Shown piece by piece: positions 37,907-64,000 of a DNA stretch of 64,000 bases. Made by a program: the position numbers and the translations under genes. Position 1 is the first letter of the stretch; the number at the start of each line of letters is the position of its first letter. The notes below the pieces were generated by a model. It made no database searches. It saw only the letters and a program-made list of their open reading frames with translations, and was not told the origin of the DNA. This DNA is from Globisporangium splendens (taxonomy: Eukaryota > Oomycota > Peronosporomycetes > Pythiales > Pythiaceae), in NCBI GenBank assembly GCA_006386115.1, contig VFIW01000143.1:1-64000 (forward strand). The letters run 5' to 3'.

Positions 37907-40736
37907 TTACTGCTTCAAGGAAGCAGCAAATTCCTCAAACCAGGACAGACTCTCTGGGTTGCGCAGCGCGCTCTTGTTGGTCACCGCGTGGCCGTCGATG
38001 ATCTTCTTGACCGTGAGCTCCACCTTCTTGCCGCTCACGGTGTACGGGATCTCGGGACACGCAGCGATAAGCCCAGGCATGTGGCGAGGCGACGCCTGCT
38101 CTCGGATCTGCTTGCAGACCTTCTTCTGGAACTCGGGGCTGCACTCGTGGCCCTCGGCCATGACCACGAACAGCACGATGCGCACGTCTGGCGTGCCGTC
38201 GTTCAGCGTGTAGTTCTGTCCAATGACGACGGAATCCGCGATCTCGTCCATGGCTTCCATGATCTTGTAGATGTCCGCGGTACCGATGCGGACGCCGCCG
38301 GGCTTCAGTGTGGCGTCGGAGCGGCCGTAGATGACAACGCCTCCGTTCTTGGTCACCTCCGCAAAATCGCCATGTCGCCAGATGTTGGGGAACGTGTCAA
38401 AGTCTACTCATAGCCAAGACAAGATACAGTGTTAAGCATGGCAAAGCAGCATTGCGGTTCAAAAGACGACGTGGATACTTACATGCGCCAAAGTACTTGG
38501 AGCCGTTCTCATCGTTCCAGAACTTGAGTGGCATTGAGGGGAACGGCTTGCCGCAGATCAGCTCGCCCTGCTCTTGGAGAACCTCTTTGCCGTCGTCGTT
38601 GTAAATGTGCACGTCGAGCCCAAGACCACGAATCTGCAGTTCGCCATCGTACACTACAGGGCGAAACGCGAAGCAGACACATGCATATAGAATGAGTATA
38701 CGCATGAAATGTGTGCATAGCTGCAATGCGTTGACACTGTCCTACCTGGCAAGTTGGTGCAGCCCAGTGCGAAGCACCCATTCAAGTCTGTCCCGCCACT
38801 GATCGATGCAAATTGAACGTCGCTCTTGATTTCCTCATACACAAACTACGCATCAAGCACAGACACACCTCTCCAGTTAAAGAGAGCATTCTCTACTACA
38901 TCTCAAACCAATAACATACCTTGAAGATATTTGTACTCGCTGGCGAGCCCGTGGACGCAATGAGCCGCAACTTGGACAGGTCGAACTCCTTCCCAGGCAG
39001 GCAGCCAGCGTCCATCACAGCCGCCAAGTACCGCGCACTCGTTCCGAACACCGTCACGCCAACATTCTGCGCGTACTCCCACAGCGCGCCTGGTGATGGG
39101 TACAGCGGGTTCCCGTCAAAGATGACAACCGTCGCACCGGTGCCCAAGACGCTCACGAGCCAGTTCCACATCATCCAGCTAGTAAACAATAAAACTGTTA
39201 ACGCCAACCATTTCTGGCGTCCTGATTCAGTCCTCTAGCAAGTGCACTCACCCCGTGGTCGTGTAGTAAAACACCTTGTCCTCGCGCGAGATGTTCAAGT
39301 GGATCATGTGCTCCTTCATGTGGTTCAAGAGCACGCCCGGGCCCTGGATCAGGCACTTCGGCAGCCCCGTCGTGCCACTGCTGTACATGACGTACACTGG
39401 ATGGTCGAACGGCAGTTGCGCAAAGCTGATGCTCTCCGTGGGGGAACCAGTCGTTTCGCTGAGGAACTGGTCGTAGTAGACCGCGTTCTTAATTTTCGAG
39501 AGGTCGAGATCCTGGGTCTGCTGGATCGTGAAGCGGAACACCACCACTTTCTCCACCGACGGCAGCTTGCTGATGATCTCCTTGAGCTGTGGCATCGTGT
39601 CCACGCGGTTGCCCTTGTAAAAGTACCCGTCGGTCGCAAACACCACCTTTGGCGTAATCTAATAGAAGTGTTGACACAAGAGCATCGTTGGCAATAAGGA
39701 TCGGCATGCAGCAAAACAGCCTCAATAGAGTTAAATACCTGCGCAAAACGATCGAGAACACCTTGAGAGCCGAAATCTGGCGAGCAGCTCGACCAAATGG
39801 CGCCGAGACTCGTCGCCGCAAGCATCGCGATGATCGTCTCGGGGATGTTGGGCGTGTACGCGACGATGCGGTCTCCCGGCACGACGCCGAGTTCCGTCAG
39901 ACGCGCAGAGAGCTGTGCGACACGCGAGTAGAGCTGCTTGTACGTGATCACGGTCTCCTGGTTGCTCGTCTCGGCCTTGAAGACGATCGCCGGGTGGTCG
40001 TCGCGGAAGCGCAGCAGGTTTTCCGCAAAGTTGAGGCGCGCGCCGGGGAAAAACTTGGCTCCCGGCATCTTCGTGACGTCATCCACCACTTTCTCGTACG
40101 GCTGGGACGAAATGACGCCCGTGTACTTCCAGCACTGCAACCATAGTGCAAGACCATTAGACAACATGACTCAAGCGCACACTAATAGATGATGCGCTTC
40201 ACACAAATCAAGATAAAGCGCAGAAGAGCGTACCGCATCCCAGAACTCTTCCAAGTGTTCCACTGACCACGTCCACAGCTCATCCGGCGTCGACAGAGAC
40301 ACCCTACGACAAGCACGACCATCAAAACCACCATCACTTTAGTCCGTCTGACTCAAACAATCACTTGCGCGTTTTGTTCGCAAGACGATAGCGTCTCAAC
40401 ACATTGCACCACCACCACATTCACCACATACACATACGTACTTGTAGTTTTCGTTGACAAATTTGGTGAAGCGCATCCAGTGCGACGTGTCCAAGATCGC
40501 CTGCGTTGGCTTCCACACTGTCAACATACACACGCCACAGTACATCAATCCCTCGCATCCTTTTCCCCATTGTGAGCAACAGATAAGCAAACGCGCACTA
40601 CACATCATCACATACGCAGCTTGCGGTCGTTGTCGCTGAGCTGCTTCTTGATCGCGCCCGTGGGACTCAGCGGGGACTTCGTCTTGTCCACAGGCAGCGC
40701 GTCGCTCTTGCGCTTCACAGGCGAAGGTGGCGTCAT
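37907..40736 (-). CDS. AACS: Acetoacetyl-CoA synthetase
   Basis: Nine exons on the minus strand (40736-40616, 40517-40442, 40303-40234, 40134-39739, 39658-39252, 39178-38920, 38845-38746, 38653-38483, 38406-37907) join in phase to 699 residues. Key motifs are an N-terminal ACAS-type region (TPDELWTWSVEHLEEFWDA, PGARLNFAENLL), the AMP-binding loop MYSSGTTGLPK, GWMMWNWLV, ISGGTDLNG, YGRSDATLKPGGVRIG, and the C-terminal catalytic lysine region PYTVSGKKVELTVKK. The enzyme activates acetoacetate to acetoacetyl-CoA in the cytosol for sterol or lipid synthesis. The length is close to animal enzymes. The intron at 38407-38482 has two possible acceptors a few bases apart. Confidence 0.9.
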
Positions 40737-41081: not shown

Positions 41082-44000
41082 TTAGACTTGTCCGTACTGA
41101 TGTCCTGGTGAGTGCGACACCATGTAAAAGGACGACGTCGAAGTCGACGCTGAAGCGATGTCTACAATGTGATTTGAAACCTGCGAAGAAGAAACGAAAG
41201 AGGAGCTGTAGTTGTTCCTCATCGGCACACACTGCCGCACGCGTGTGAGTAGACTCGTGAAACTCGCAGTGAAACCCAACTCCGGTGTGAAATGGAACAG
41301 CTCGCCACGCGACAACGTGTAGTGCTTGTCCAGTCCGATCTCCATGTCGTTGAGCATGATCGGCAGGATGGGTTTGCCCTTGTCTTCAGCGAACGCCAAC
41401 TGGTCCTTCAACGTCTCACTCGACATGGTCTTGCTCGAGATCACGACAACGAACGCCGAGCATCTCGCAATCGCCTCTTTCGCGGCGTAGATGCGATCCG
41501 CCATGTCGTCGTACGATTGTGCGCCGTCCAACACACAGTCGATCCCATTCTCCGTGAGTCGGTCGTAGATTCGTTGCGTAAAGCTCGCATGCTTTTCGCC
41601 ATGTGATATGAACACGAAATTGTTCTCGAGGCTCGCCACGTCCCATTCCACACTCGTGAGATTATTAACCATGCTCAGTTGAGCTCGGTCCAGTGGTCCT
41701 CGCCGTCGCTGCCCTCCTCGTCTCGCCACATTCTCCTTGCGCTGCTTCTCGATCTCATCGCGGACCCCATCGAGCAACAGACGGAACTGGGACGCATACC
41801 GATCCTCATCGTACGTGTACCTGATGTTCCGCAGATCCGACTGAGTCACACTCGTGATCGCAGGCTCGAACGGCACCATCTGACGCGTGTACAGGTACAC
41901 TTGGAGGTCCTCCGTGACGGCAACGTGCTCCGTCGAGATCGCCATGATGGGCGTCCCCGTCTCTTTCGCGTACGCCAGCTCCTTCAGACACCACTCCGAT
42001 CGCGTGTAGTCTTCCGTGAGGATGCACACGACCATGGCGGCGTTCTTGATGCCGCGCGCGATCTCTTCGCGCCACACGGAGCCACCGCCGATGCCGCTCG
42101 GATCCACTGTACGAAATAAAACGAAACACGCATCGAGTAAAGAGACCACGGTTAGAAGACATGCTCACACATCGCCGTAACGAAAAGATGCTGGCAAAAA
42201 AGACAAAAAGACAAAAAGACAAAAGACAAAAGACAAAAGACAAAAGACAAAAGACAAAAGACAAAAGACAAAACCACGTACTCAGATCCAGCCACGTCGT
42301 GACATTCGCCCGTTCCAGACTCTCGCGAAGCTTCAGCGCAAACTCACTGTGCGAGTGCGTGTAGCTGATCATCACGTCGCGGTTCCCAGCAGCGCGCTTG
42401 ATCTCGAACTGCAGCGTCGTGGACGTCGTGCAGTCCACTGGACGGTACCCGTCGTGGTTGGTTCGCATCACGTCGCCTCCGGCAGCGAGTATCGCCAGTG
42501 CCGTGTTCTGGAGCTCGTCCTTCATCGCTAGGTGCAGTCCCGTATCTCCGTTCGGGAGCTGCTCGTTGATGTCGGCGCCATGTTGCACCAGACAGTCGAA
42601 CAGCGACTCGGACGCGTCCTTCGCCTTTGCCGCACACAACAGCGGGGTCATGTCTGCATCGTCACGAAGGTGTGGATCTGCTCCTTTCTCCAACAGCACC
42701 TTGACCACGTCCACGCGGTTCATACGTGCTGCCCAATGCAACGGCGACCTTCCTTGGCTGTCCTGGAAGTTCGGATCCGCACAAGCTTCAAGCAGTATCT
42801 CGACAGCATCGACAGCGCCGTTGATAGCTGCCCAGTGGAGCGGCGTTCGGCGGTACAGACCGCAGTAGCCGTGCTCTCCCAGACAGTTCGGGTCGGCGCC
42901 TTTACGCAGCAGTTTGCGTACAGCCGACACATCATTCGCAGCTGCAGCTTCGTGGAGAGGCGTGAGAGCGACGTCGCCACCCCACTTTTCGATCTCACGA
43001 GCCACGGGGATATTGCCGCGCAGGTATGCAAGTTGCAGCACGGTCAGCGTGTTCATGCGTCCGGGATCTGGGATCTCGAGGTGGTTTGCGCCGGCTTCGA
43101 GCAGCATCGTCACGATCTCGGAGCTTTCAGCAACGAAGAGTGGTGGGATGCGTTCGGACCAGTACGACGACTTGGACTTGGCATTTGGGTCTGCACCGTG
43201 GTCGAGAAGCCATCTCACGGCGTTGATTTGTCCACTCGCGACGGCGCAATGGAGTGGAGTCACGAGCGTTGTCCGGAAGATGGACGTATCTGTTTGTTCA
43301 GCGAACGCCACAGGCTTGGAGATCACATATTTCGCAATGTACCAAAACAAGTTGCCCGTGCTGAATCGTACGCGTGACACTTTGTCGAAGGCGTTCACTT
43401 GGAAGCCAGCGCGAACGAGCAGGTCCATAGCGTGCACGTTGCCGTGTTGAGCTGCAACATGCAGTGGATTCTTCACGGACGAGCCAAACAAACCGCACCA
43501 GATCGACGCATTTCGGTAAACCTCCTCAGCAAAGTCGTCGCCAAGGCGAATCTGAGCATACGTGAGCACGTTCTCCATCGCACGGAGGTTGCCGAGTTCT
43601 GTTTCCTTGTACAGCTGCTTGCGGATATCGTCTGTGATACGTCTGCGCTCCGACTTGCACCGAGTTCGCTTCTGTGTGATCCGCGATCGCACGTTTCCTG
43701 TTTGGTCCTTTTCTTTGAATGCGCCTAGTTGCATTTTCACGTGCTCGCGGAACCGCGCAAAATATGTGATCTCGAGAATGGTCCCCAGAAACGCGAGCGC
43801 CCCGCCAAATCCGTACAGGTGCACTCGAAATAGTGGACAGTTGAAGTTGTCGCCCTGTAGGAAAACGTACAGAAAGTAGTAAAACACGAGGATGTCAAAG
43901 GTTAGGATCCCGGCACAGATGAGCTCGCACATCTGCAAGTACAGCGTCCGGGTAACTTTGGCATTCATCACATCCTCCTGGCGCTTGAACGGCTCAAACA

Positions 44001-44577
44001 GACGCAATCCAGTCGCGGGCAATCCGATCAGGATCACGAACGGTAGCATGTGGTACACGAGGACCGCGTAGACGACGATGGTGCTGCAGCTTCCACAGGA
44101 GACGTCGCTCCCCTCGGGGCATTCCTCGCTTCCGAACGCGATCGAGTGCGAGACGTCGCGCACGTACAGTCCGCCGTCCTGGATCGGGATCGCATTGATG
44201 TAAAACGAACACAGCGCACAAAAGTCGAGGAACGTGATGCAGTACATCGTGATGCGCAGGCGCCGCGCAAAGTACGAGTTGTGCGTGTGCGCCTTGCCGA
44301 GAAACCAGCGCGAGAGTGGAGGACGTCGGTCGTTGCCATGCTGGCGGACGCTCTCACCGTCGTGTGGCCGCTTCTGGCCTCGGAAGAGCGCGATCCGCTG
44401 CTTCTGTCGGCGCAGCGCGTCCCGGAACCTGTGCTGTGCGCTCTGCTCGTCAGTACCGTCGCTGTCGTCGGCATCTCGTGGGAGCTCGCGCCAGGCGCCG
44501 TGGCTCGCGCCAGGCGTCATGTTGTCGACCGCCTCCAGTTGCGATGCCATCGCCTCCTCGGCGAGATTCTCCCTCAT
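41082..44577 (-). CDS. TM-ankyrin-TIR-TIR protein, gene 1
   Basis: Two exons (44577-42282 and 42106-41082) give 1106 residues. The N-terminus is variable and polar; then about four transmembrane segments (residues ~120-300) with a short Cys loop (CPEGSDVSCGSC) between the first two. Ankyrin repeats follow (TPLHCAVASGQINAVRWLL, TPLHWAAINGAVDAVEILL and others). TIR1 is split by the intron: RDVMISYTHSH, then the BB-loop-like GIGGGSVWREEIARGI and YTRSEWCLKELAYA (Glu about 808). TIR2 shows NFVFISHGEKHASF and SSETLKDQLAFA. Known TIR domains signal by assembly or cleave NAD. A ligand or pathway cannot be given. Its intron has an expanded AAAAGAC repeat. Head-to-head with gene 2. Confidence 0.82.
42107..42281 (-). 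repeat. TIR gene 1 intron with heptanucleotide microsatellite
   Basis: The intron is 175 bases, against 125-126 in genes 2-4. The extra length is a tract at about 42196-42273 (plus strand) of some ten units of A(4-6)GAC, seven of them exactly AAAAGAC. Gene 2 has two units, genes 3 and 4 three. Confidence 0.85.
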
Positions 44578-45529
44578 GAGCAGCGCAGTTGGACGCGCCG
44601 ATTGCGAAATGGAGCGCTCTCATGTCGGCATCTTTGCGATTCAAGCGACGCGAGTTTACGCGCTTGCGCCAGTGATGTTTGTGGAGCGTATGCATTTTTG
44701 GCGCGTATGCACAAACTAATTTTTATATAGATCCGTTTTTATTTTGGTGGTGGTTGCCGATTGGTGGATATTCGCAAAAGAAAGATGTGATTGGCTGACG
44801 GTTTATTTAGGAATGACGATCGTCACAGATGTTCAGTTTACCGCACATTCAGTGTATTTGGTTGGTGCAAAATATAAATATTTCCAGCTTCTGATTGGCT
44901 AAAATGGGTAGTTCGGAGACATGGAAGCTGATTGGCTGTTCCTTTTTCATTCTCTTTGTCATAAACGATCGGATTACAGACATTGCCTTGAAGCAAGAGT
45001 CTGAGTGCATCGAGCTGTGGAGCAAGCGGCGGGTCTTCGGTACGAGCTAGTTTGAGGACAAACCTTGCATATCTTTTGAGTGTGGCAGTGGAGCGCTGGA
45101 AAATCGTTTCAGTGCCGGGACTGGGCTGTCGGTTGTTTCACGTTGTTGCAGTGGGTCCCCAAGAGGTGGGAAATGGTGCAGCGCAGTAGGCGCCATAGAA
45201 GCAATATGCCGTCGTTGAGGTGTTGGTGCTCCAGCCGAACTGGAGGGACACGATTTGCATCCATGTCGGAACTCGTTCACCTATATTGCAGCAATTTTAT
45301 CATATTCAGCCAATGAAAAGATCCTTACTTCTTTTTATGCACCAATCCCAGTGCTCGCTCTCCAGCCGTCAACATTTGCTGTGCTCCAAAAGCGTAAACA
45401 CTGTTGCAACTTTGTGTTAAGTACACTAATCAAACAGAACACTATCGAGTGTGGTGCCGCATGTTGAGCTAGCCGAAAAGCCACGGTGCTCATTTTGTGT
45501 CACAACGCAGTCAGTGCCGCAGAGTAGCA
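44578..45529. promoter_or_regulatory. Shared divergent promoter of TIR genes 1 and 2, with CCAAT motifs
   Basis: A 952-base head-to-head region. ATTGGCT (reverse complement AGCCAAT) occurs three times, at 44790, 44894 and 44931, and a further ATTGG at about 44759. These are CCAAT-box type motifs of the NF-Y kind. An exact Inr (CTCATTTT, 45489-45496) lies 34 bases before the gene 2 ATG. On the other side CTCCATTTCGCAATC precedes gene 1. No other gene seen inside. Confidence 0.5.
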
Positions 45530-48500
45530 ATGGCGCCGCCGGACGCGCGCTACGAGGCGATGAACACGACGCCCGCGCGCAATGGGCACGACATCCGCCA
45601 GCAAACGTCCATGGCCGCTGGTGGCGCTGACCCCAGCAGCAGACACAGCAGCTTCGCCCTGGCCGCAGACACGCCGACTACGCCGCTCAAAGCGCTTCCG
45701 ACGCCACAGAAGCGCCATCGGGGCGAGCCTCGCGCGCTGCCAGCGCACTTTATCGGCAGCACGTATGCCAGCAACTCGTACTTTGCGAAGCGGTTGAGCG
45801 CAGCGATGTGCTGCGTCGCACTCCTGGACCTCGGCGGCGTGCTCGTGTACATGGGTGGCCTCATCGCGACCCAAGACACCGGTTGCACCAGTGGAGACCA
45901 ACACACGTGCGCGACCTGCGACTCAAACGTCGTGTTCGCATCACTGGTGTACCAAATGCTGCCGTGCGTTGTCCTCGTCGGTCTCCCCGCAACGGGAATC
46001 CGCGCCTGCGCACCCTTCAAGTACCAGGAGCAGCGCCACGGCGAGAACAAGAGGACAAAGTTGATGGTCACGCGCACGTCGTTCTTCCAATTCTGCGAAA
46101 TCGTGAGCTCCATTCTCCTGGTGGTCAGTAACCTTGTCATTTTCTTTGTCGCCTACAGTTTGGCGAATGGATACTTTTTTCGCTGCAATCTCGGCGTCCA
46201 ACTATACGTATTTGGGGCGATCGTGGCGTTAGTCGGCGTGATAATCGAGATCACGTACTTCGCGCGATTCCGCGAGCATATGAAAATGCAACTCGGTGCG
46301 TTCCGAGAACAAGATCAAGCTGGGAACAAGAGCGCACAAGCCCCACCTAAACGAAGTCTGTGCAAGTCCGAACTCACGCGCACCGTCAACCACATCCGCA
46401 AGCAACTCTACAACGAAACGGAACTCGGCAACCTCCGCGCTATTGAAAACGTGCTCAAGTATGCCAAGATTCGACTTGGCGACGACTTTGCAGATGACAT
46501 GTACCCAATGCCGTCGATAAGTTGCGGTTTCTTTGGCAGTTCCGCCAAGAATCCACTACACATCGCAGCACAATTCGGCAATATCTATGTGATGGACCTC
46601 CTCATCCGTTCAGGATTCCGCGTCAACAGCTACGACAAATCACTTCGTGCACGGTTCACCACAGGTGACTTGTTTTGGCGTTTTGCGCAGTATGTGATCT
46701 CCAAGCCCGTGATCGTGCCCGACAAATCGACCTCCATCTTCCGGACAACGCTCGTGACTCCACTCCATTGCGCCGTCGCGAGTGGACAAATCAACGCCGT
46801 GAGATGGCTTCTCGACCACGGTGCAGACCCAAATGCCAAGTCCAAGTCGTCGTACTGGTCCGAACGCATCCCACCACTCTTCGTTGCTGAAAGCTCCGAG
46901 ATCGTGACGATGCTGCTCGAAGCCGGCGCAAACCACCTCGAGATCCCAGATCCCGGACGCATGAACACGCTGACCGTGCTGCAACTTGCATACCTGCGCG
47001 GCAATATCCCCGTGGCTCGTGAGATCGAAAAGTGGGGTGGCGACGTCGCTCTCACGCCTCTCCACGAAGCTGCAGCTGCGAATGATGTGTCGGCTGTACG
47101 CAAACTGCTGCGTAAAGGCGCCGACCCGAACTGTCTGGGAGAGCACGGCTACTGCGGTCTGTACCGCCGAACGCCGCTCCACTGGGCAGCTATCAACGGC
47201 GCTGTCGATGCTGTCGAGATACTGCTTGAAGCTTGTGCGGATCCGAACTTCCAGGACAGCCAAGGAAGGTCGCCGTTGCATTGGGCAGCACGTATGAACC
47301 GCGTGGACGTGGTCAAGGTGCTGTTGGAGAAAGGAGCAGATCCACACCTTCGTGACGATGCAGACATGACCCCGCTGTTGTGTGCGGCAAAGGCGAAGGA
47401 CGCGTCCGAGTCGCTGTTCGACTGTCTGGTGCAACATGGCGCCGACATCAACGAGCAGCTCCCGAACGGAGATACGGGGCTGCACCTAGCGATGAAGGAC
47501 GAGCTCCAGAACACGGCACTGGCGATACTCGCTGCCGGAGGCGACGTGATGCGAACCAACCACGACGGGTACCGTCCAGTGGACTGCACGACGTCCACGA
47601 CGCTGCAGTTCGAGATTAAGCGCGCTGCTGGGAACCGCGACGTGATGATCAGCTACACGCACTCGCACAGTGAGTTTGTGCTGAAGCTTCGCGAGAGTCT
47701 GGAACGGGCGAATGTCACGACGTGGCTGGATCTGAGTACGTGGTTTTGCCTTTTGTCTTTTTGTCTTTTTTGCCAGCATCTTTTCGTTACGGTGATGTGT
47801 GAGCATGTCTTCTAACCGTGGTCTCTTTACTCGATGCGTGTTTCGTTTTTATTTCGTACAGTGGATCCGAGCGGCATCGGCGGTGGCTCCGTGTGGCGCG
47901 AAGAGATCGCGCGCGGCATCAAGAACGCCGCCATGGTCGTGTGCATCCTCACGGAAGACTACACGCGATCGGAGTGGTGTCTGAAGGAGCTGGCGTACGC
48001 GAAAGAGACGGGGACGCCCATCATGGCGATCTCGACGGAGCACGTTGCCGTCATGGAGGACCTCCAAGTGTACCTGTACACGCGTCAGATGGTGCCGTTC
48101 GAGCCTGCGATCACGAGTGTGACTCAGTCGGATCTGCGGAACATCAGGTACACGTACGATGAGGATCGGTATGCGTCCCAGTTCCGTCTGTTGCTCGATG
48201 GGGTCCGCGATGAGATCGAGAAGCAGCGCAAAGAGAATGTGGCGAGACGAGGAGGGCAGCGACGGCGAGGACCACTGGACCGAGCTCAACTGAGCATGGT
48301 TAATAATCTCACGAGTGTGGAATGGGACGTGGCGAGCCTCGAGAACAATTTCGTGTTCATATCACATGGCGAAAAGCATGCGAGCTTTACGCAACGAATC
48401 TACGACCGACTCACGGAGAATGGGATCGACTGTGTGTTGGACGGCGCACAATCGTACGACGACATGGCGGATCGCATCTACGCCGCGAAAGAGGCGATTG

Positions 48501-48865
48501 CGAGATGCTCGGCGTTCGTTGTCGTGATCTCGAGCAAGACCATGTCGAGTGAGACGTTGAAGGACCAGTTGGCGTTCGCTGAAGACAAGGGCAAACCCAT
48601 CTTGCCGATCATGCTCAACGACATGGAGATCGGACTGGACAAGCACTACACGTTGTCGCGTGGCGAGCTGTTCCATTTCACACCGGAGTTGGGTTTCACT
48701 GCGAGTTTCACTAATTTTCTTGTGAATGTGCAGCAGCATGTGTCCATGATGAGCAACGGTAGTGCCTCGATCGCTTTTAGGCATTCTGGTCTGGTGCGTC
48801 TAAAATCCTCTGCTTCCTATGCGCAGTCGATGTATTCACAATGTAATGTTTCGGATCCCAGATAA
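45530..48865 (+). CDS. TM-ankyrin-TIR-TIR protein, gene 2
   Basis: Exons 45530-47735 and 47862-48865 encode 1069 residues. The start is the first ATG (MAPPDARYEAMNTTP), a form shared with genes 3 and 4 (DARYEA). Transmembrane segments fall at roughly 88-110, 133-156, 182-208 and 222-245, with the Cys loop CTSGDQHTCATC between the first two. A conserved membrane-exit motif ITYFARFREHMKMQLGAF leads to ankyrin repeats (about 335-680). TIR1 carries WCLKEL with Glu 778; TIR2 carries KDQL with Gln 971. The tail after TIR2 is short and Ser-rich. From the fourth TM segment to the end of TIR1 it is nearly identical to genes 3 and 4. Confidence 0.85.
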
Positions 48866-49683
48866 GAGTTTTAACTTGGGAAGAAAACCATTCGAAATCC
48901 AATATTGTTTCTCTGGTCTAGCTCCGGTCTGGTTGGTATTTTCGTTCTACAGCACTTAGCACTTGTATTTGTTTTGGATGAGGTCCTTCATCAAAAGCAA
49001 TTGCAGGAAGAAGAAAGCTCGAGTTTATGCTTTCTACACCTATTTTGCGAACCCCAGACTTTTTAGCCATGACATACCCGTCAGGGGACCTCTTTGTGCT
49101 TTTATTGCTTGCACAAATCCGCATGGTCAAGCTCATGCGAAAGCACTGGCTCCAATCAATCAGCGAAGCTTTGACACGTGTCGAGACACTCTGCTCAACC
49201 GCATCTATCACTGCATGCACGTAAACACTTGCCACAAAAAAAACACAGATGTTGATGCCTTCGAGATGGTAAACAGCCAGCTGCCATCCCACAGTTTGCG
49301 CTCCCTTTAGTCAACACTTGATATCCAATAGCCTTACACAATTTATACCGTTTTCAGGTCGTTCGACTGATCTGCGATGCTGCCAATAAATCGACTTTGT
49401 TCCGAAATCTTATCTATCTACCAGAATCGTTAGCAGTGGAGCTGACTACAGCGAGTGGAAACACGAACGTCCATCACTCTTGAAGTTCATGCTGGTGACT
49501 CGGAACGCTAGCCAGCAATCGCGAGATTGACCTACTCTACCTGTTTAAGTTAATCTCTCTAGCAGCGATGTGGAGACCCTTGTGTGTGACATGTTGACTT
49601 AAGCGACAAGAAACAGAGCTTCGCATCAGAACCCACACTCCGAGCACTGTACGCGTGAGGTGAGACCAGTGTGCAAGAGGACA
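48866..49683. other. Intergenic region between TIR genes 2 and 3
   Basis: No coding signal with conserved features. It holds the 3' flank of gene 2 and the promoter of gene 3; no CCAAT cluster like that upstream of gene 2 was seen. Confidence 0.45.
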
Positions 49684-52469
49684 ATGGAGTGGGCATCTCC
49701 GCAGGACGCGCGCTACGAGGCGATGAACGCGACGCCGCCGCCGCACACGCGCGACGATAGACTCAGCGGATGCGACAGCCACGTGTCACTGCCCGCCACC
49801 ACACCCACGGCTTTCAACGACGACAGCATCAGCAGACGCAGCAGCCTCACTCACGCGAAACTCACGCCGAGATCGCACCTCAAAGCGCTTGCATTTCAGC
49901 CGCGACAGAAGCGCCACCAGGGTGAACCGCGCGCACTGCCGGCACATTGTCTCGGCAGCGCGTATGCCAGCAACTCGTACTTTGCGAACCGATTGTGCAT
50001 TGTGATGTGCTGCGTTGCGCTCCTGGACCTAGGCGGCATGCTCCTGTTCTGGTCGCTGTTCGCCGCCGACGTCGAAGTCCCGGTCGATCTCCAAGACGCG
50101 GGATGCGCCAGTGGAAACTTCGAGAGCTGCATGATCTGCAGATCAAACATCCTATACGCGGCGTTGGTGTTCCACTTGCTACCGTTCGTCGTCCTTATCG
50201 GTCTCCCAGGCACGGGAATCCGCGCCTGCGCACCCTTCAAGTACCAGGAACAGTGCCAAGATGGGAGCGAGAGAACAAACTTGAAGATCAAGCGCACATT
50301 TTTCTTCCAGTTCTGCGAGGTTGTGAGCTCCGGCGTCTTCATCATCAACAGCCTCGTGGCATTCTTTGTTATCTTCAGTTTATTCAATCAATACTACTTT
50401 CAGTGCAAACTCCTCCGCGTCCAACTATACCTACTTGGAGCGGCTGTGGCGTTTTTCGGCACGATAATCGAGCTCACGTACTTTGCGCGATTCCGCGAAC
50501 ACGTGAAGATGCAGCTGGGTGCGTTCAAGGAAGAAGATCAAACGGGGAGCGTGCGGTCACAGATTTCACTACAACGAAGACTATGGATGTCAGAACGCAC
50601 ACGCGTCATCGACGACGTTCGCCAGCAACTCTACAACGAAACGGAACTCGGCAACCTCCGCGCTATTGAAAACGTGCTCAAGTATGCCAAGATTCGACTT
50701 GGCGACGACTTTGCAGATGACATGTACCCAATGCCGTCGATAAGTTGCGGTTTCTTTGGCAGTTCCGCCAAGAATCCACTACACATCGCAGCACAATTCG
50801 GCAATATCTATGTGATGGACCTCCTCATCCGTTCAGGATTCCGCGTCAACAGCTACGACAAATTACTTCGTGCACGGTTCACCACAGGTGATTTGTTTTG
50901 GCGTTTTGCGCAGTATGTGATCTCCAAGCCCGTGATCGTGCCCGACAAATCGACCTCCATCTTCCGGACAACGCTCGTGACTCCACTCCATTGCGCCGTC
51001 GCGAGTGGACAAATCAACGCCGTGAGATGGCTTCTCGACCACGGTGCAGACCCGAATGCCAAGTCCAAGTCGTCGTACTGGTCCGAACGCATCCCACCAC
51101 TCTTCGTTGCTGAAAGCTCCGAGATCGTGACGATGCTGCTCGAAGCTGGCGCAAACCACCTCGAGATCCCAGATCCCGGACGCATGAACACGCTGACCGT
51201 GCTGCAACTTGCATACCTGCGCGGCAATATCCCCGTGGCTCGTGAGATCGAAAAGTGGGGTGGCGACGTCGCGCTTACGCCTCTCCACGAAGCTGCAGCT
51301 GCGAATGATGTGTCGGCTGTACGCAAACTGCTGCGTGAAGGCGCCGATCCGAACTGTCTTGGAGAACACGGGTACTGCGGTCTGTACCGCCGAACGCCGC
51401 TCCACTGGGCTGCTATCAACGGCGCTGTCGATGCTGTCGAGATACTGCTTGAAGCTTGTGCGGATTCGAACTTCCAGGACAGCCAGGGAAGGTCGCCGTT
51501 GCATTGGGCAGCACGTATGAACCGCGTGGACGTGGTCAAGGTGCTGTTGGAGAAAGGAGCAGATCCACACCTTCGTGACGATGCAGACATGACCCCGCTG
51601 TTGTGTGCGGCAAAGGCGAAGGACGCGTCCGAGTCGCTGTTCGACTGTCTGGCGCAACATGGCGCCGACATCAACGAGCAGCTCCCGAACGGAGATACGG
51701 GACTGCACCTAGCGATGAAGGACGAGCTCCAGAACACGGCACTGGCGATACTCGCTGCCGGAGGCGACGTGATGCGAACCAACCACGACGGGTACCGTCC
51801 AGTGGACTGCACGACGTCCACGACGCTGCAGTTCGAGATTAAGCGCGCTGCTGGGAACCGCGACGTGATGATCAGCTACACGCACTCGCACAGTGAGTTT
51901 GTGCTGAAGCTTCGCGAGAGTCTGGAACGGGCGAATGTCACGACGTGGCTGGATCTGAGTACGTGGTTTTGTCTTTTGTCTTTTTGTCTTTTTTGCCAGC
52001 ATCTTTTCGTTACGGCGATGTGTGAGCATGTCTTCTAACCGTGGTCTCTTTACTCGATGCGTGTTTCGTTTTATTTCGTACAGTGGATCCGAGCGGCATC
52101 GGCGGTGGCTCCGTGTGGCGCGAAGAGATCGCGCGCGGCATCAAGAACGCCGCCATGGTCGTGTGCATCCTCACGGAAGACTACACGCGATCGGAGTGGT
52201 GTCTGAAGGAGCTGGCGTACGCGAAAGAGACGGGGACGCCCATCATGGCGATCTCGACGGAGCACGTTGCCGTCACGGAGGACCTCCAAGTGTACCTGTA
52301 CACGCGTCAGATGGTGCCGTTCGAGCCTGCGATCACGAGTGTGATTCAGTCGGATCCGTGGAACATCAGGTACACGTACGATGAGGATCGGTATGCGTCC
52401 CAGTTCCGTCTGTTGCTTGATGGCGTCCGTGATGAGATCGAGAGGCAGCGTGAGGAGATGTGGCGATGA
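49684..52469 (+). CDS. TM-ankyrin-TIR protein, gene 3 (ends after TIR1)
   Basis: Exons 49684-51958 and 52084-52469 encode 886 residues. The architecture equals genes 2 and 4 through TIR1 (WCLKEL, Glu 801). The TM1-TM2 loop is CASGNFESCMIC. The frame then stops at 52467-52469 (MWR stop) in the linker after TIR1, where the paralogues continue into TIR2. The TIR2 coding sequence survives immediately downstream in a frame shifted by one base. The protein would therefore be a one-TIR version, if expressed. Ankyrin and TIR1 sequence is almost the same as in genes 2 and 4, with a few changes (KLLREGADPN, EACADSNFQD). Confidence 0.75.
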
Positions 52470-52472
52470 GAG

Positions 52473-53085
52473 GACAGCGACGGCGAGACAACTGAATCGA
52501 TCTCAGTCAAGTATAGCCGACGACACGATTACCGTGGACTGGGACCTGGAGACCCTCGGGGACGACTTCGTGTTCATCACACATGACGAGAAACACCCGA
52601 GCTTTGCTCAGCGGATCTACGACCGATTCACGGAGAGAGGGATCGACTGCGTGTTGGATGGTGCGCAATCGTACGAGGACATGGCCGATCGTATCTACGC
52701 TGCGAAAGAGGCGATTGCGAGATGCTCGGCGTTCGTTGTCGTTCTCTCGAGCAAGACCGTGTCAAGTGAGACGTTGAAGGACCAGTTGGCGTTCGCTGAA
52801 GACAAGGGCAAACCCATCTTGCCGATCATGCTCAACGACATGGAGATCGGACTGGACAAGCACTACACGTTGTCGCGTGGCGAGCTGTTCCATTTCACAC
52901 CGGAGTTGGGTTTCACTGCGAGTTTCACTAATTTGCTTGTGAGTGTGCAGCAGCATGTGTCCATGATGAGCAACGGTAGTGCCTCGTTTGCGTACCCTCA
53001 ACATTCCGGTCGATCGTTGCTGAAAACATCCTCTTCCTTTTCGCTATCCGTCGATCCCAATGTGAGTGTCTTGGGTATTGTTTGA
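52473..53085 (+). pseudogene. Detached TIR2 of gene 3
   Basis: An open frame from the frameshift region to 53085 encodes DDFVFITHDEKHPSFAQRIY, CVLDGAQSYEDMADRIY, SSETLKDQLAFAEDKG and the Ser-rich end, the TIR2 of the family. It has no start codon of its own in a good position; any expression would need an indel correction, splicing or frameshifting. Confidence 0.75.
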
Positions 53086-54116
53086 TGTCTTACCTTCGGC
53101 TCTAGCAGTCACACCTAGTCGAGAACAACGCATTTTGCGGATGATGTGCCTAATTTAGTTCTGTAGATGAGAAGGACTAAATTCCAGCCCGAATTTAATG
53201 TATGAAACTATGAATGAACCGATCAGTTTTGCCAGATTCTTCGTCGTTGTTGATCGCTGCCAGGTATGATCAACTAACTGGACAAGGTATCGCATTTTGT
53301 ACCATTAGAGTGCGTTGGACACTCTTGCAAATGCGTCGAGATGGTGCCTTTCAAGCCCATGCTATTAAAAGTATTGCTCGTCTCATTGTATCCCCCACCT
53401 TGCAACGCGTCCACGTGTGGTGGACATCCGATGGACCATCATTGTTGTCCATCTTCAAAACATCTGTTTACTGGCTCTGTTGATGCCTTTCCCTGACTCT
53501 GAAAAAAAGAGAGACGCTTCGCCAGCTGTTTTGTCTCTCTGCCAATCAGAAGTCTTGCTCGCCATCGTAATCTTCGATTCAGCAAAACTGTGGCAAACAT
53601 CCTTACATAATTGGTACCCTTCTCAAAACGATATTTGAATGTAAAACGAGTTAGAAGGGTAAAGCTGCAGCAAGATGCACATGCAGGGCAGGAACAACAC
53701 CTGGCGCTCCTGGGGAGCGAGTATGCCCAACAGCCTCGAAATCACGCGTTTCCCTATTGCCGGAGGCGTCGGTGAAGACCTCCTTGGACAATGGCAAGTC
53801 TCACGTGCTTTCCGACACACTCACTCACTCGCTTTATATGCAAAAACCTGCAAGTTTTCATATCTTGTGCTGCTCTGTTGATGTCCAACCCCCACGGTTT
53901 ATAGACATCACATGAGTGATTGTAGGTACACTTAGAAGTCGGTGCGCACCTGTCAATCTCCAACTTTCGCAGCATCCCGTTTAGGTATATCCGGCAGCAT
54001 GCAGGACGAAACCAACTCCTGGCTACCTTGATTTAAATGACACATCACGGAGCTTGCCAGAATCCACCACTATTATTAATATACGCCCCGTTTCTTGTCA
54101 TTCTTGCAAGCCGAAG
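53086..54116. other. Intergenic region between TIR genes 3 and 4
   Basis: About 1 kb without recognisable genes. TCATTCT at 54098-54104, followed by GCAAGCC, resembles an Inr 13 bases before the gene 4 ATG. Confidence 0.45.
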
Positions 54117-57100
54117 ATGAACCGCGAAAGCTGGGCACCTCCGCAGGACGCGCGCTACGAGGCGAACGCGACGCCGCCGACGCACGCACGTGATGCGTTC
54201 AATGGGCACGAGGCTCACCAGCCAGCGGCAATGGACGGAGCCGCTGGCAGCGAGGAGAACGGCAGCAGACACAACAGCTTCGCCCTGGCGAGAAGCACGC
54301 CGCGGCGGCCACCGCTCCGAGCGCTTCAGACCCAACGGAAGGGCCATCAAGGCGAACCACGCGCGCTGCCGACGCACTTTCTCGGCAGCACGTACGCCAA
54401 CAACTCGTACTTTGCGAAGCGACTGAGCACGGTGATGTGGTGGCTCGCGCTCGTGGACTTCGGCGGCGTGCTCTTGTTCTGGTTGCTGTTCATCAACGAC
54501 CTCCAAAACTCGACCCAAGAAACGGAATGCGTTAAAGACAGTGACGAGATCTGCGCGATCTGCAGCACGCTCATCCTGTATTCGGCGATAGTGTACCACA
54601 TGCTTCCGTGCGTCGTGCTCATTGGTCTCCCCGCCACAGGAATTCGCGCGTGTGCACCCTTCAAGTACCAGGAACGGCGCCAAGAAGAGGGTAACTTGAA
54701 GGTCACGCGCACGTTTTTCCTCAAGTGCTGTGAGGTCGCGAGCTCCGGCATCTTGTTTGTCACCATCGCTGTGATTTTGTTCCTCTGGTACGGTTTAACG
54801 CAAGGACTCTTATTTGCGTGTGAACTTCATCGCATCAAGCTGTATTCGCTTGTGGCCACTCTGGCTTTTGTCGGCGTGATAGTCGAGATCACGTACTTCG
54901 CGCGATTCCGCGAGCACGTGAAGATGCAACTCGGTGCGTTCCGAGAACAAGATCAAGCTGGGAACAAGAGCGCACAAGCCCCACCTAAACGAAGTCTGTG
55001 CAAGTCCGAACTCACGCGCACCGTCAACCACATCCGCAAGCAACTCTACAATGAAACGGAACTCGGTAACCTCCGCGCTATTGAAAACGTGCTCAAGTAT
55101 GCCAAGATTCGACTTGGCGACGACTTTGCAGATGACATGTACCCAATGCCGTCGATAAGTTGCGGTTTCTTTGGCAGTTCCGCCAAGAATCCACTACACA
55201 TCGCAGCACAATTCGGCAATATCTATGTGATGGACCTCCTCATCCGTTCAGGATTCCGCGTCAACAGCTACGACAAATTACTTCGTGCACGGTTCACCAC
55301 AGGTGATTTGTTTTGGCGTTTTGCGCAGTATGTGATCTCCAAGCCCGTGATCGTGCCCGACAAATCGACCTCCATCTTCCGGACAACGCTCGTGACTCCA
55401 CTCCATTGCGCCGTCGCGAGTGGACAAATCAACGCCGTGAGATGGCTTCTCGACCACGGTGCAGACCCAAATGCCAAGTCCAAGTCGTCGTACTGGTCCG
55501 AACGCATCCCACCACTCTTCGTTGCTGAAAGCTCCGAGATCGTGACGATGCTGCTCGAAGCCGGCGCAAACCACCTCGAGATCCCAGATCCCGGACGCAT
55601 GAACACGCTGACCGTGCTGCAACTTGCATACCTGCGCGGCAATATCCCCGTGGCTCGTGAGATCGAAAAGTGGGGTGGCGACGTCGCTCTCACGCCTCTC
55701 CACGAAGCTGCAGCTGCGAATGATGTGTCGGCTGTACGCAAACTGCTGCGTAAAGGCGCCGACCCGAACTGTCTGGGAGAGCACGGCTACTGCGGTCTGT
55801 ACCGCCGAACGCCGCTCCACTGGGCAGCTATCAACGGCGCTGTCGATGCTGTCGAGATACTGCTTGAAGCTTGTGCGGATCCGAACTTCCAGGACAGCCA
55901 AGGAAGGTCGCCGTTGCATTGGGCAGCACGTATGAACCGCGTGGACGTGGTCAAGGTGCTGTTGGAGAAAGGAGCAGATCCACACCTTCGTGACGATGCA
56001 GACATGACCCCGCTGTTGTGTGCGGCAAAGGCGAAGGACGCGTCCGAGTCGCTGTTCGACTGTCTGGTGCAACATGGCGCCGACATCAACGAGCAGCTCC
56101 CGAACGGAGATACGGGGCTGCACCTAGCGATGAAGGACGAGCTCCAGAACACGGCACTGGCGATACTCGCTGCCGGAGGCGACGTGATGCGAACCAACCA
56201 CGACGGGTACCGTCCAGTGGACTGCACGACGTCCACGACGCTGCAGTTCGAGATTAAGCGCGCTGCTGGGAACCGCGACGTGATGATCAGCTACACGCAC
56301 TCGCACAGTGAGTTTGTGCTGAAGCTTCGCGAGAGTCTGGAACGGGCGAATGTCACGACGTGGCTGGATCTGAGTACGTGGTTTTGTCTTTTGTCTTTTT
56401 GTCTTTTTTGCCAGCATCTTTTCGTTACGGCGATGTGTGAGCATGTCTTCTAACCGTGGTCTCTTTACTCGATGCGTGTTTCGTTTTATTTCGTACAGTG
56501 GATCCGAGCGGCATCGGCGGTGGCTCCGTGTGGCGCGAAGAGATCGCGCGCGGCATCAAGAACGCCGCCATGGTCGTGTGCATCCTCACGGAAGACTACA
56601 CGCGATCGGAGTGGTGTCTGAAGGAGCTGGCGTACGCGAAAGAGACGGGGACGCCCATCATGGCGATCTCGACGGAGCACGTTGCCGTCACGGAGGACCT
56701 CCAAGTGTACCTGTACACGCGTCAGATGGTGCCGTTCGAGCCTGCGATCACGAGTGTGATTCAGTCGGATCCCCTAGATATCCGATACACGTACAATGAA
56801 GATCGGTATGTGTCCCAGTTCCGCCTCTTGCTTGATGGCGTCCGTGATGAAATCGAGAAGCAGCGCACAAAGCATGTGGCGATGAGAGGCCACAGACGGC
56901 ACCTGAATCGATCTCACTCGAGTACAACTTACGATGTTATAGGCGTCGGCTGGGATGTGGCGAGCCTTGAAGACAACTTCGTGTTCATCACGCATAACGA
57001 GAAACACCCGAGCTTTGCGCAACGAATTTATGACAGACTCACGGAGAATGGGATCGACTGCGTATTGGATGGTGCGCAATCGTACGAGGACATGGCGGAT

Positions 57101-57505
57101 CGCATCTACGCCGCGAAAGAGGCGATTGCGAGATGCTCGACATTCATCGTCGTTCTCTCGAGCAAGACCGTGTCGAGTGAGACGTTGAAGGACCAACTGG
57201 CGTTCGCTGAAGACAAGGGAAAACCCATCCTGCCGATCATGCTCAACGACATGGAGATCGGACTGGACAAGCACTACACGTTGTCGCGTGGCGAGCTGTT
57301 CCATTTCACACCGGAATTGGGTTTCACTGCGAGTTTCACTAATTTGCTTGTGAGTGTGCAGCAGCATGTGTCCATGATGAGCAACGGTAGTGCCTCGTTT
57401 GCGTACCCTCAACATTCCGGTCGATCGTTGCTGAAAACTTCATCTTTCTACTCGGTGTCATTGTCAATTAAAGGGTCTCAAACAATTGATGAGAACCAGC
57501 GGTGA
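54117..57505 (+). CDS. TM-ankyrin-TIR-TIR protein, gene 4
   Basis: Exons 54117-56373 and 56499-57505 encode 1087 residues, the cleanest copy. Transmembrane segments fall at about 103-125, 150-172, 198-222 and 235-257, with the loop CVKDSDEICAIC. Ankyrin repeats span about 350-690 (NPLHIAAQFGNIYVMDLL, TPLHEAAAANDVSAVRKLL, SPLHWAARMNRVDVVKVLL). TIR1 is at about 719-870 with BB-loop GIGGGSVW and Glu 795 in WCLKEL. TIR2 is at about 911-1035 with Gln 985 in KDQL. The N-terminus and cytosolic tail are unlike the paralogues, while the core is the same. By analogy the TM region would sense or anchor and the TIRs signal; this is inference. Confidence 0.85.
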
Positions 57506-61046: not shown

Positions 61047-64000
61047 CAAGATGGAGAGAGAGAGAGAAGGTAATTCTATTTAACTTATGGTCTACATACA
61101 GTTTAAGAATTCCTGAGTCTCATTAACACTGCTGACAGGGAGGTGTTTCTTAGTTTTGACGGTGTGGCACCGATATCATTGTCGAGTAGAGCTGCGACTT
61201 GGGACATAAGAACTTGATCATTTCCCCGCGATTCGTCGGTGAGTATCTTCGTACTCTTGGAGTTCATTGCCATGTTGGCGAGAAGATCGGCCATCTTGTT
61301 TTGTTCTCGTTTTGTGTGATTCCAGGAGGTCCACGCAAAGTTGGCGATGATTCGATTTACCCGAACTGCTAGAGGCTGCAACTCAGTCTGGCGTCTTGAG
61401 GAGAACCCGTTCTGGGCTGCGATAATCATTTGGCTGTCTCCGAAGACTTCCAACTTGACTTCATAGTGCTGTAGGCAGTGTGCACTGTATGCCAGGCCAT
61501 CTTTCAGCGCGCTGTATTCGCACCAATTGTCCGTGACTTCTGGTCCCATGTACGCATAGCCGCATGCTTTGAGTTCCCATCGATTGCTGCGTTCGTTCAG
61601 GAGGATGAGTGCCCATCCGCTGTCTCCTGGACCTGGGTTGCCGCATGCACTTCCATCGAAATACAAACGCGCCGTCGTCCATTCTTCCAGTTGGCGCGAC
61701 AAGTCTTGTCTCTCCAGTACGCTGAGCAGTTGGCTCAGGTAGATAGCATTGATCTTTTCTCCTTTGAGCATTCTCATCCGATGAGCCACAGCCCGCACCT
61801 GCATCACGCACGCTGTCCACACTCGCTGGGTACTGTCTTCGATAGTGAGATGTTGCCGTTCATGCACTATTTCCACTCTCGTTCTCCACAGCAATACTGG
61901 GATGCTTGATGTGACGATAAACCAGAGTTTCTGTAGTGCTGTCGAGTGTTCCGGAGTAATGAACCCAAAGTGCTTTTCCAATTCCCGGAGCAAAGATCGT
62001 TGGCCGGCGGGGCTGTGCGGCTCGCAACATGCGGTAAGAAGAGATTGAGTGCTTGCTCCGTCAATGTTCGGCCCATCCGTCTCCCGAGGAAGGCTGTCCA
62101 CACGGCTTGTGCTCGCTTGCAACTCCAGACTATGTGTGAGATAGTTTCTTTTGTCTCCCCACATCCGGCATTGCTTGGGCACGCCGAAGACTCGATCCTT
62201 CCCGGATGGAACAGGTTGAGCTGCATCGTAGAAATCCGGTATGTCGTCCACATCTGATACGGCGTAAGACATCCTCGTTGTTTCCACAGATCTGCTGGTA
62301 GTCGATACTGCACATGGCTGTACCACTGGTCAGTTTTCGCGACTTCGTTGAGCTTGTCTATGAGTCCTCCGAGACCTTGATACAACTTGCTGTGCAGCCT
62401 TCGTGTTCGTGCTCGGTCAGTTGTCTTCTGGATACTGTTTGGGGGAGTACGTTCATGCACCAGCCACGGACAGTGAGTCGTGAGCGGGTGCGGTTTGAAA
62501 GTCCACCCTACAGTTTTTATTTCTTCTTCGATCATTGCCACGTCATGTTGACAGATAGTATCCCCAGCCCAGTCGGTCACTGTCCAGAGAACTCCGTTTG
62601 CTTGCCGTTGCATCTGGATGTAGTCCGTGTGGCTCCCCTCCGATACTGGCACCGCGATGATGGTTCCCATGCCATTACTGATCCACTTGTACTCTCGTTT
62701 TGTGTGTTTCCTGCTCCACGGCTCCTGGTGACTGTTCAACTGGTTGCCTGCATCGATTCCTATCTCCGGTGAGCATAGAATGATGCTGGTTACGAGTTTT
62801 CGCAAGGTGGTCATTCGTTTGAACGTGAGAGTCGCCGTCATGGTTGGTAGCCGCACGGAGAACACTCGCTCTTCTTCCCGTCTCACGTTGAGGCTGGCCA
62901 AATTGCATTCCTTCAGGAAAGGAACCGTTTTGACTGTATACTGCTCGCCTTGACTGTCGATTACCCAGGGGTTGTCGTTCCACTGAAAGGATGGCCAGAA
63001 GGCTCGAGTCTCTTCCGATAGTTGATGAATCGTCTGCTCAGGTTTTCTCCCAAAGTACACACCTACACGTCCGTCTGATCTCCCTCGAGGTCTAGGGTCG
63101 GTAGTAAGGATTCCATTTGCTGCTTCAGATCGTCTTTCCACGCGGGATTGCGTCTCTCTGCCGCCACCAAGTCTTCACAGAGATACTCCCACCCGAGTCG
63201 GTGAATATTGTTCGTCTGGTACAGCCTTGTCTGTGCGTTCTGGCTTCGCTCCTTTGGTGAAATCGCGCAACATCCCCGGTTTTGACTTTTGTCCCGATGA
63301 ACCTGTTCATGCCAATTTTCTGTGTACTTGTCTCGCGGTCGCTGCAGCCACCGAGTTGTCCGCCGCATCGCTTGTCGCTTTATTGCAAGAGGTACTGAAT
63401 AGAGACCTATGCCTCCTTCCTTGACCGGCAAGTAGAGCAGGGAAGGACTCACCTTGTGCCTCGTGCCGTCTGTGCCAAGTGTCGATTTCCACAAAAATTG
63501 CTTTTGTAGATTCACTAGCTGGTCCACAACTTTCGCTGGGGGCTTGATGTAGCCGGCAGTGAACAGAATCGACGGCAGCAAGACCGAATTCAGTAGAAGC
63601 ACTCTCCCCACCACACTGTTGGAGACTTTGGCCGCGATGATCAATCTGGTTCGGAGCTTTTGCAGGCGGTCCTCCCAATTAGCTTGCGTGATGTTCCCGG
63701 TACCTATTTGGATGCCAAGGTACCTCACCGTCTCTCCATGCTTCAGGACCGGAATGCCGCATCTTTGTTCCTGGACTACTGCTGTGTTGAGACAGATGTA
63801 GCTGCTTTTCGTTGGTTGCACGTGCAGACCTGATTGCTGACCGAACTCGGACAGCAGCTGCATCAGTCGAGGCAGCTGTTTCCCTTGTTTCAAAAAGACG
63901 GCGGGTCGTCGACGAAGGTCGAAATGAGATGGGATTCTGCTCCGGATCTGGTCACACGAATTCCTTCCAGATGGGGGTCTTGTTGAACTGCCAGTGCGAG
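61047..64000 (-). mobile_element. Degenerate LINE (non-LTR retrotransposon), runs off the right edge
   Basis: In minus-strand order: RT C-terminal half from the window edge, a connecting region with a CCHC-type zf-RVT finger, RNase H, a stop at 61103 and a pyrimidine-rich 3' tail ending near 61047. Several frameshifts break it. The order RT, zinc finger, RNase H is that of I/Tad1-like LINE groups. Confidence 0.82.
61103..64000 (-). pseudogene. LINE ORF2 remnant: RT, zinc finger, RNase H
   Basis: RT shows the catalytic FVDD (63905-63916), then a one-base deletion shifts the frame. Next comes VFLKQGKQLPRLMQLLSEFG, the thumb region (RYLGIQIGTG, LLNSVLLPSILFTAGY), open to 63063. A second frame (63141-61867) carries the finger CPSNAGCGETKETISHIVWSC. 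A third (62326-61103) carries RNase H: LYFDGSACGNPGPGDSG, VTDNWCEYSALKDGL, VFGDSQMII and MADLLANMA. At least three frame changes mean no functional polyprotein. The 5' part, ORF1 and endonuclease lie outside the window. Confidence 0.82.

What the first reader, a model, noticed from the sequence alone, without database searches (positions are those of the whole stretch)
41082..57505. Cluster of four membrane-ankyrin-TIR genes, three still with two TIR domains, in an oomycete
Genes 1, 2 and 4 encode about four TM segments, a Cys-bearing loop, an ankyrin array and two consecutive TIR domains in one chain; gene 3 ends after its first TIR. Ankyrin and TIR modules are both known in immune and cell-death proteins. 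I do not know of a characterised oomycete receptor with this order. A local family with one inverted member resembles receptor clusters in other kingdoms. The signalling role is inference.
Basis: partly seen in the sequence, partly recalled or inferred. Interest (0 to 1): 0.92.

Follow-up and report, generated by a model that had tools for sequence, protein, structure and literature searches.

The report
Water-mould membrane receptors with paired TIRs
A crop-infecting water mould carries a gene cluster, with relatives across oomycetes, for proteins predicted to sit in a membrane that join one TIR domain keeping the residue with which known TIR enzymes cut NAD+ to a second TIR that has lost it, and that would likely work as alarm receptors resembling those of plant and animal immunity.

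Summary
Confirmed, and larger than reported. The window is from Globisporangium splendens. Genes 1, 2 and 4 each encode four predicted TM helices, an ankyrin array and two TIR domains; one intron lies inside TIR1, and intronless paralogs read straight through. Gene 3 changes frame between its TIRs; its TIR2 is still open downstream. A fifth copy lies just past the window; at least 17 family copies (about 14 loci after setting aside probable haplotigs) are in the assembly. Relatives occur in 15 named oomycete genera, labelled 'TRP Ca2+ channel', 'ankyrin-like' or 'TIR domain-containing'; the TRP label is not supported. One review mentions uncharacterised oomycete ankyrin-TIR proteins; my searches found no description of the 4TM or tandem-TIR layout. 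New here: (1) TIR1 keeps the catalytic-position Glu in 167 of 167 rows with a residue, TIR2 has Gln in 164 of 169 and Glu in none; (2) TIR2 is still under purifying selection; (3) the ankyrin-TIR core is homogenised between paralogs (dS near 0) while the membrane part has diverged, with amino-acid change concentrated in two predicted outside loops. Best reading: a membrane sensor with an active TIR and a built-in pseudo-TIR. Enzyme activity, ligand and immune role are untested.

The parts
41082..44577 (-). TAT1: exon 1 44577-42282, exon 2 42106-41082; 4TM-ANK-TIR1-TIR2, 1106 aa; head to head with TAT2
45530..48865 (+). TAT2: exon 1 45530-47735, exon 2 47862-48865; 1069 aa
   Evidence: identical to deposited P0076
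49684..52469 (+). TAT3: exon 1 49684-51958, exon 2 52084-52469; frame ends after TIR1 (886 aa)
52564..52914 (+). TIR2 of TAT3, open in another frame (ORF 52345-53085); Gln codon at 52783
   Evidence: TIR_2 44.2 bits
54117..57505 (+). TAT4: exon 1 54117-56373, exon 2 56499-57505; 1087 aa
   Evidence: identical to deposited P0063
45779..46279 (+). TAT2 four-helix membrane domain (residues 84-250); C130 and C219 in or beside the predicted outside loops
46388..47635 (+). TAT2 ankyrin array (residues 287-702 as spanned by matches to solved ankyrins)
47624..48235 (+). TAT2 TIR1 (residues 699-860, split by the intron 47736-47861); catalytic-position Glu778 at 47987-47989
48347..48697 (+). TAT2 TIR2 (residues 898-1014); Gln971 at 48566-48568
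46730..48629 (+). tract of TAT2 that is 97-100% identical per 100 bp to inverted TAT1, flanked by diverged sequence

Best explanation
These genes encode proteins with four predicted membrane helices, an ankyrin array and two TIR domains, the first keeping the catalytic-position glutamate and the second carrying glutamine there, and they likely act as membrane receptors in which TIR1 would cleave NAD+ under the control of TIR2, a predicted pseudoenzyme. Shown: the domain order, the conserved Glu/Gln split, purifying selection on TIR2, the near-identical core shared by paralogs whose membrane parts have diverged, and the excess of amino-acid differences in the two predicted outside loops. Inferred: a ligand or membrane disturbance acts on the two outside loops (perhaps tied by a C130-C219 disulfide); the four-helix part clusters; the ankyrin array brings TIR1 and TIR2 of neighbouring chains together so that TIR1 completes a composite NADase site against TIR2; the product (ADPR or cADPR type) or NAD+ loss triggers calcium signalling or cell death. 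Gene conversion would keep one shared output engine while the sensor ends diversify.
For: TIR1 Glu in 167 of 167 rows with a residue (9 gaps), TIR2 Gln in 164 of 169 (7 gaps) and Glu in none, 176 rows (the earlier 125-row alignment agrees: E 121, 4 gaps; Q 120, S 1, A 1, 3 gaps). Profile alignment sets the two positions opposite each other. TIR1's best solved relatives are the CRISPR-associated TIR Cat1 and the NAD+ hydrolase AbTIR, aligned through this motif. Mutating the catalytic Glu of SARM1 abolishes its NADase (PMC8635717, passage). TIR2 dN/dS 0.12 for TAT2-TAT4 and 0.08 for C44a-C44b. TAT1-TAT2 dS 1.66 in the TM domain against 0.009, 0, 0.022 and 0.014 in ankyrin, TIR1, linker and TIR2. 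Loops pN 0.39-0.49 against 0.18-0.20 elsewhere in the TM domain. Four-helix model.
Against: No activity, ligand, localisation or expression data. TIR2 Gln is a loss by sequence only; 5 of 169 rows have Thr, Ser or Leu instead. The divergent C145 copy has a barely recognisable TIR2 (28 bits; no Pfam match) with a Glu near the spot by eye. The BB-loop region of TIR1 is poorly modelled (740-743 pLDDT under 50) and pTM is 0.56, so TIR1-TIR2 contact is untested. The 4TM part has no recognised family. The deposited assembly is a hybrid of Illumina and PacBio reads (PMC7163027), so small paralog differences may be lost.
Confidence: 0.55

Rival explanations
1. A sensor for development or chemotaxis (for example in zoospores) rather than an immune-type receptor, with the same TIR1/TIR2 biochemistry.
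For: Conserved across oomycetes of very different lifestyles, as expected of a housekeeping sensor; no immune assay exists.
Against: Local expansion, fast outside loops and core homogenisation look more like a recognition family; the C191 copies could still be housekeeping.
Confidence: 0.25
2. Both TIRs are non-enzymatic scaffolds, as in MyD88-type signalling, and the Glu of TIR1 is structural.
For: Not all TIRs are NADases even where fold and self-association are kept (PMC9153377, passage).
Against: Ser, Trp, Cys and Glu of the TIR1 motif are kept in 166-168 rows each, as in enzymatic TIRs; a pure scaffold would not explain loss in one TIR only.
Confidence: 0.15
3. A TRP-type calcium channel, as many deposited names say.
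For: Names such as 'Transient receptor potential ca2 channel'; ankyrin repeats plus TM helices.
Against: Four TM helices, not six; no ion-channel Pfam domain among the matches; the TRP model matches one ankyrin repeat at 29.5 bits against a cut-off of 498.75; TRPA, TRPC, TRPM and TRPN homologs were undetectable in oomycete genomes (PMC4820453, passage).
Confidence: 0.05
4. The core identity between paralogs is an artefact of the hybrid assembly rather than gene conversion.
For: MaSuRCA hybrid assembly (PMC7163027); haplotig contigs C44 and C193 are present.
Against: Copies keep their own intron lengths (125-175 bp), three linker-TIR2 types and a mosaic TIR2 in C44c, which merging would have erased.
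Confidence: 0.1

Closest known systems
Uncharacterised oomycete ankyrin-TIR proteins noted by Lapin et al. 2022 (PMC9153377, passages)
   Same: Oomycete proteins joining ankyrin repeats to TIR; very likely this family
   Different: The passages give no membrane domain, tandem TIR, Glu/Gln split, clustering or gene conversion
Mollusc Toll-2 receptors with tandem TIRs (PMC4929906, abstract)
   Same: Membrane receptors with two C-terminal TIRs; intragenic recombination reported
   Different: Toll receptors of animals; here four TM helices, ankyrins and no LRR match
SARM1 and plant TIR-NLRs (PMC8635717 and PMC9153377, passages)
   Same: Catalytic Glu of TIR NADases at the TIR1 motif
   Different: One TIR each; SARM1 has ARM and SAM, TNLs have NB-ARC and LRR, none matched here
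Dictyostelium TirE (PMC13142454, passage)
   Same: Two diverged tandem TIRs in a protist protein
   Different: RCC1 repeats, not ankyrins
Bacterial Cat1 and AbTIR
   Same: Best sequence matches of TIR1 among solved structures (E 6.9e-7 and 3.1e-4)
   Different: Bacterial; other partners; no ankyrins or 4TM part known to me (recalled)

Membership tests
TIR NADase (TIR1) | TIR fold with catalytic Glu | tested here: met
   TIR_2 two stretches; Glu 167 of 167 rows with a residue; aligned with Cat1 and AbTIR
TIR NADase (TIR1) | cleaves NAD+ on self-association | not testable with these tools
   needs an assay
TIR NADase (TIR2) | catalytic Glu | tested here: not met
   Gln 164, Thr 3, Ser 1, Leu 1 of 169 rows with a residue; Glu 0
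Oomycete ankyrin-TIR proteins of Lapin et al. 2022 | ankyrin repeats plus TIR in an oomycete protein | tested here: met
   organism
TRP channel | six-TM ion-transport domain | tested here: not met
   four TM peaks and helices; no such Pfam match; TIGR00870 29.5 bits on one ankyrin repeat, cut-off 498.75
Toll-like receptor | LRR ectodomain and single TM | tested here: not met
   no LRR family in the Pfam tables; four TM helices
NLR (TNL or NACHT type) | NB-ARC or NACHT NTPase | tested here: not met
   none in the Pfam tables for TAT2, C191a and C191b
RxLR effector (one deposited label, P0023) | signal peptide and RxLR motif | not tested
   only the label was seen

The most novel reading that the evidence does not exclude
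Oomycetes have their own class of membrane immune receptor: a four-helix, disulfide-tied sensor whose outside loops diversify, coupled through ankyrins to a TIR NADase that carries its own dead TIR partner in the same chain as regulator, with gene conversion keeping one shared output engine for many sensors.
Probability: 0.33. Interest if true: 0.9.

Novelty: new variant of a known kind. Interest (0 to 1): 0.72.

Why it matters
Oomycetes include major pathogens of crops and fish, yet my searches found no characterised innate-immune receptor of their own. A conserved Glu/Gln TIR pair makes it directly testable whether a TIR enzyme can be governed by a pseudo-TIR in the same chain. It would also give oomycetes a TIR route to ADPR-type messengers, where a review found no CD38 homologs in P. 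infestans or S. diclina (PMC4820453, passage). And it corrects a repeated 'TRP channel' label.

Tried and rejected
TRP channel label: rejected. Family or solved structure for the 4TM part: no PDB match up to E 10 with an 11-row profile; only scattered matches below the curated cut-offs in Pfam, none shared by more than 2 of the 11 members. A structure of that part alone could not be made, so 'no known fold' is not claimed. In the structural second look at the whole model the 50 shown rows are matches of the ankyrin part, a few reaching into TIR1; no TIR entry is among them, which shows nothing. CD38-type cyclase search of the genome: no match, but its control rang nowhere, so uninformative. 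PADLOC and NCBIfam hits are generic ankyrin and TIR matches. The loop test was made after seeing the per-region table. The heading printed says 10000 shuffles; 2000 were run. Three papers looked at in passages gave nothing on this family: PMC12223298, PMC5322657, PMC10732462.

Full report
What it is. The window is contig C52 of a 53.3-Mb, 195-contig assembly. Deposited proteins on contigs of the same lengths are named Globisporangium splendens, and two are identical to my models of genes 2 and 4. The genome paper reports 53.3 Mb and 195 scaffolds over 10 kb, from an isolate infecting black pepper (PMC7163027, whole text).

Gene anatomy. The four genes have one intron each (125-175 bp, GTACGT...TACAG) inside TIR1. 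Removing it gives WLDLMDPSGIGGG, which three intronless paralogs on contig C191 encode without a break. Pfam gives ankyrin repeats and two TIR_2 stretches. The AlphaFold model of TAT2 (72-row alignment, mean pLDDT 80.3, pTM 0.56) has four long helices between residues 84 and 255, an ankyrin part and two alpha/beta domains; the ankyrin part matches solved ankyrins over 287-702. Family-mean hydropathy over 161 rows has four main peaks (1.81, 1.83, 2.39, 1.84) with positive inner flanks, plus small bumps at 151, 950 and 956. The crude per-protein count is less clean: 4 segments in 61 of 115, 3 in 40, 5 in 7, 2 in 6, 0 in 1. C130 (111 of 113 rows) and C219 (113 of 113) lie in or beside the two predicted outside loops; a disulfide between them is inference.

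Gene 3. Its frame stops after TIR1 at 52469, but TIR2 is open downstream in another frame (ORF 52345-53085; TIR_2 44.2 bits). The deposited model P0087 agrees with mine for 880 residues and then skips about 67 bp through a second predicted GT-AG intron into TIR2. A recent frameshift, an assembly error and a real intron cannot be told apart here.

Family size. TIR profiles find further copies, counts being lower bounds: a fifth C52 gene at 70712-74183, three on C44, three on C193, four on C191, one on C170 and one on C145; with the window's four this makes 17. C44 and C193 match each other at 98.6, 99.0 and 94.6% over 7.7-8.4 kb and are probably haplotigs, leaving about 14. Named relatives come from 15 oomycete genera: Globisporangium, Pythium, Phytophthora, Nothophytophthora, Plasmopara, Peronospora, Hyaloperonospora, Bremia, Peronosclerospora, Albugo, Achlya, Saprolegnia, Aphanomyces, Thraustotheca and Lagenidium.

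Enzyme and pseudoenzyme in one chain. I aligned all 171 proteins listed with five further proteins of this genome (176 rows). At the catalytic position TIR1 has Glu in 167 rows and a gap in 9. TIR2 has Gln in 164, Thr in 3, Ser in 1, Leu in 1, a gap in 7 and Glu in none. 158 rows have both Glu and Gln. Rows are related, some are truncated models, and the first search favoured proteins with both TIRs. The Cys beside the TIR1 Glu, which matters for another activity of plant TIRs (PMC9153377, passage), is kept in 168 of 168 rows with a residue; TIR2 has Val, Leu, Ile, Thr or Phe there. Profile-profile alignment of TIR1 with TIR2 (probability 97.6%) sets the Glu and Gln positions opposite each other, without a gap nearby. 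TIR1's best solved relatives are Cat1 and AbTIR, aligned through this motif; one TIR2 sequence found none. Among the 43 shorter proteins, a motif scan saw the TIR1 motif with Glu and the TIR2 motif with Gln together in 14, and all 22 TIR2-type motifs found had Gln. The divergent C170 copy reads Glu then Gln (by eye, sequence). The C145 copy goes against the rule: its TIR2 is barely recognisable (28 bits) and by eye has a Glu near the spot. TIR2 is not decaying: dN/dS 0.12 (TAT2-TAT4) and 0.08 (C44a-C44b).

Constant engine, variable sensor. Between head-to-head TAT1 and TAT2, dS is 1.66 in the TM domain and 1.18 in the C-tail, but 0.009, 0, 0.022 and 0.014 in ankyrin (411-700), TIR1, linker and TIR2. 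Identity per 100 bp jumps from 68 to 97% at 46730, stays at 97-100% to 48629, then falls to 89 and 58%. Such homogenisation between inverted copies points to gene conversion. A run test on fourfold sites beats all 2000 shuffles in 18 of 21 gene pairs; the exceptions are C52e-C44c (134 shuffles reach it; these two are alike over most of their length), C44a-C44b (3) and C44a-C44c (1). The test assumes an even silent rate; the core can diverge in principle, since C191a is 66% identical there. C44c's linker-TIR2 is a mosaic: 2 differences from TAT2 against 74 from TAT4 at residues 831-935, then 12 against 1 at 936-1005. In TAT2, TAT3 and TAT4 the two outside loops have pN 0.39-0.49 against 0.18-0.20 elsewhere in the TM domain (permutation p 0.0002-0.0006); pS loop/other is 0.39/0.39, 0.49/0.40 and 0.26/0.39. 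Loop dN/dS per pair runs from 0.63 to 2.49, so positive selection is suggested, not shown.

Mechanism. From here on inference. TIR NADase sites form between neighbouring TIRs (PMC9153377, passages). I propose that clustering of the 4TM part brings TIR1 against TIR2, which would not turn over NAD+ itself and so would serve as partner surface or brake. The product could feed calcium signalling; a review found no CD38 homologs in P. infestans or S. diclina (PMC4820453, passage), while my own CD38 search was uninformative.

What is in print. Searches led to one relevant sentence: that some oomycetes share uncharacterised ankyrin repeat-TIR proteins (PMC9153377). Tandem TIRs are known in mollusc Tolls (PMC4929906, abstract) and Dictyostelium TirE (PMC13142454, passage). 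Most subscription literature is not in the library. The deposited 'TRP' names are not supported: the TRP model matches one ankyrin repeat at 29.5 bits against a cut-off of 498.75.

Verdict. A real, widely conserved protein design that my searches found described nowhere beyond one sentence, filed as a new variant of TIR-containing proteins. Its immune role is the most interesting untested step.

Noticed in passing
L046 (G000:C130:188000-195999, - strand): A different TIR gene in the same genome: TIR_2 (45.6 bits), a weak second TIR, an NPHP3_N/NACHT-type NTPase (61.1 bits) and an ankyrin exon in neighbouring ORFs, resembling an NLR-like TIR-NACHT-ankyrin protein.
   Followed up: partly
P0023 (Hyaloperonospora arabidopsidis): A member of this membrane TIR family is deposited as 'RxLR effector candidate protein', probably a mislabel.
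   Followed up: no
42198-42273: The intron of TAT1 holds a 7-bp tandem repeat (10.6 copies); the fifth gene C52e has an intron of the same length, 175 bp.
   Followed up: no
61054-64000: Inverted repeat of C52 at about 82.8-85.7 kb (99.2% over 2949 bp).
   Followed up: no
L010:6630-8537: Long ORF beside the fifth gene that looks retroelement-like (zinc knuckle by eye).
   Followed up: no
37907-40170: ORFs on the - strand next to the cluster read like an acetoacetyl-CoA synthetase or similar acyl-CoA ligase (by eye).
   Followed up: no
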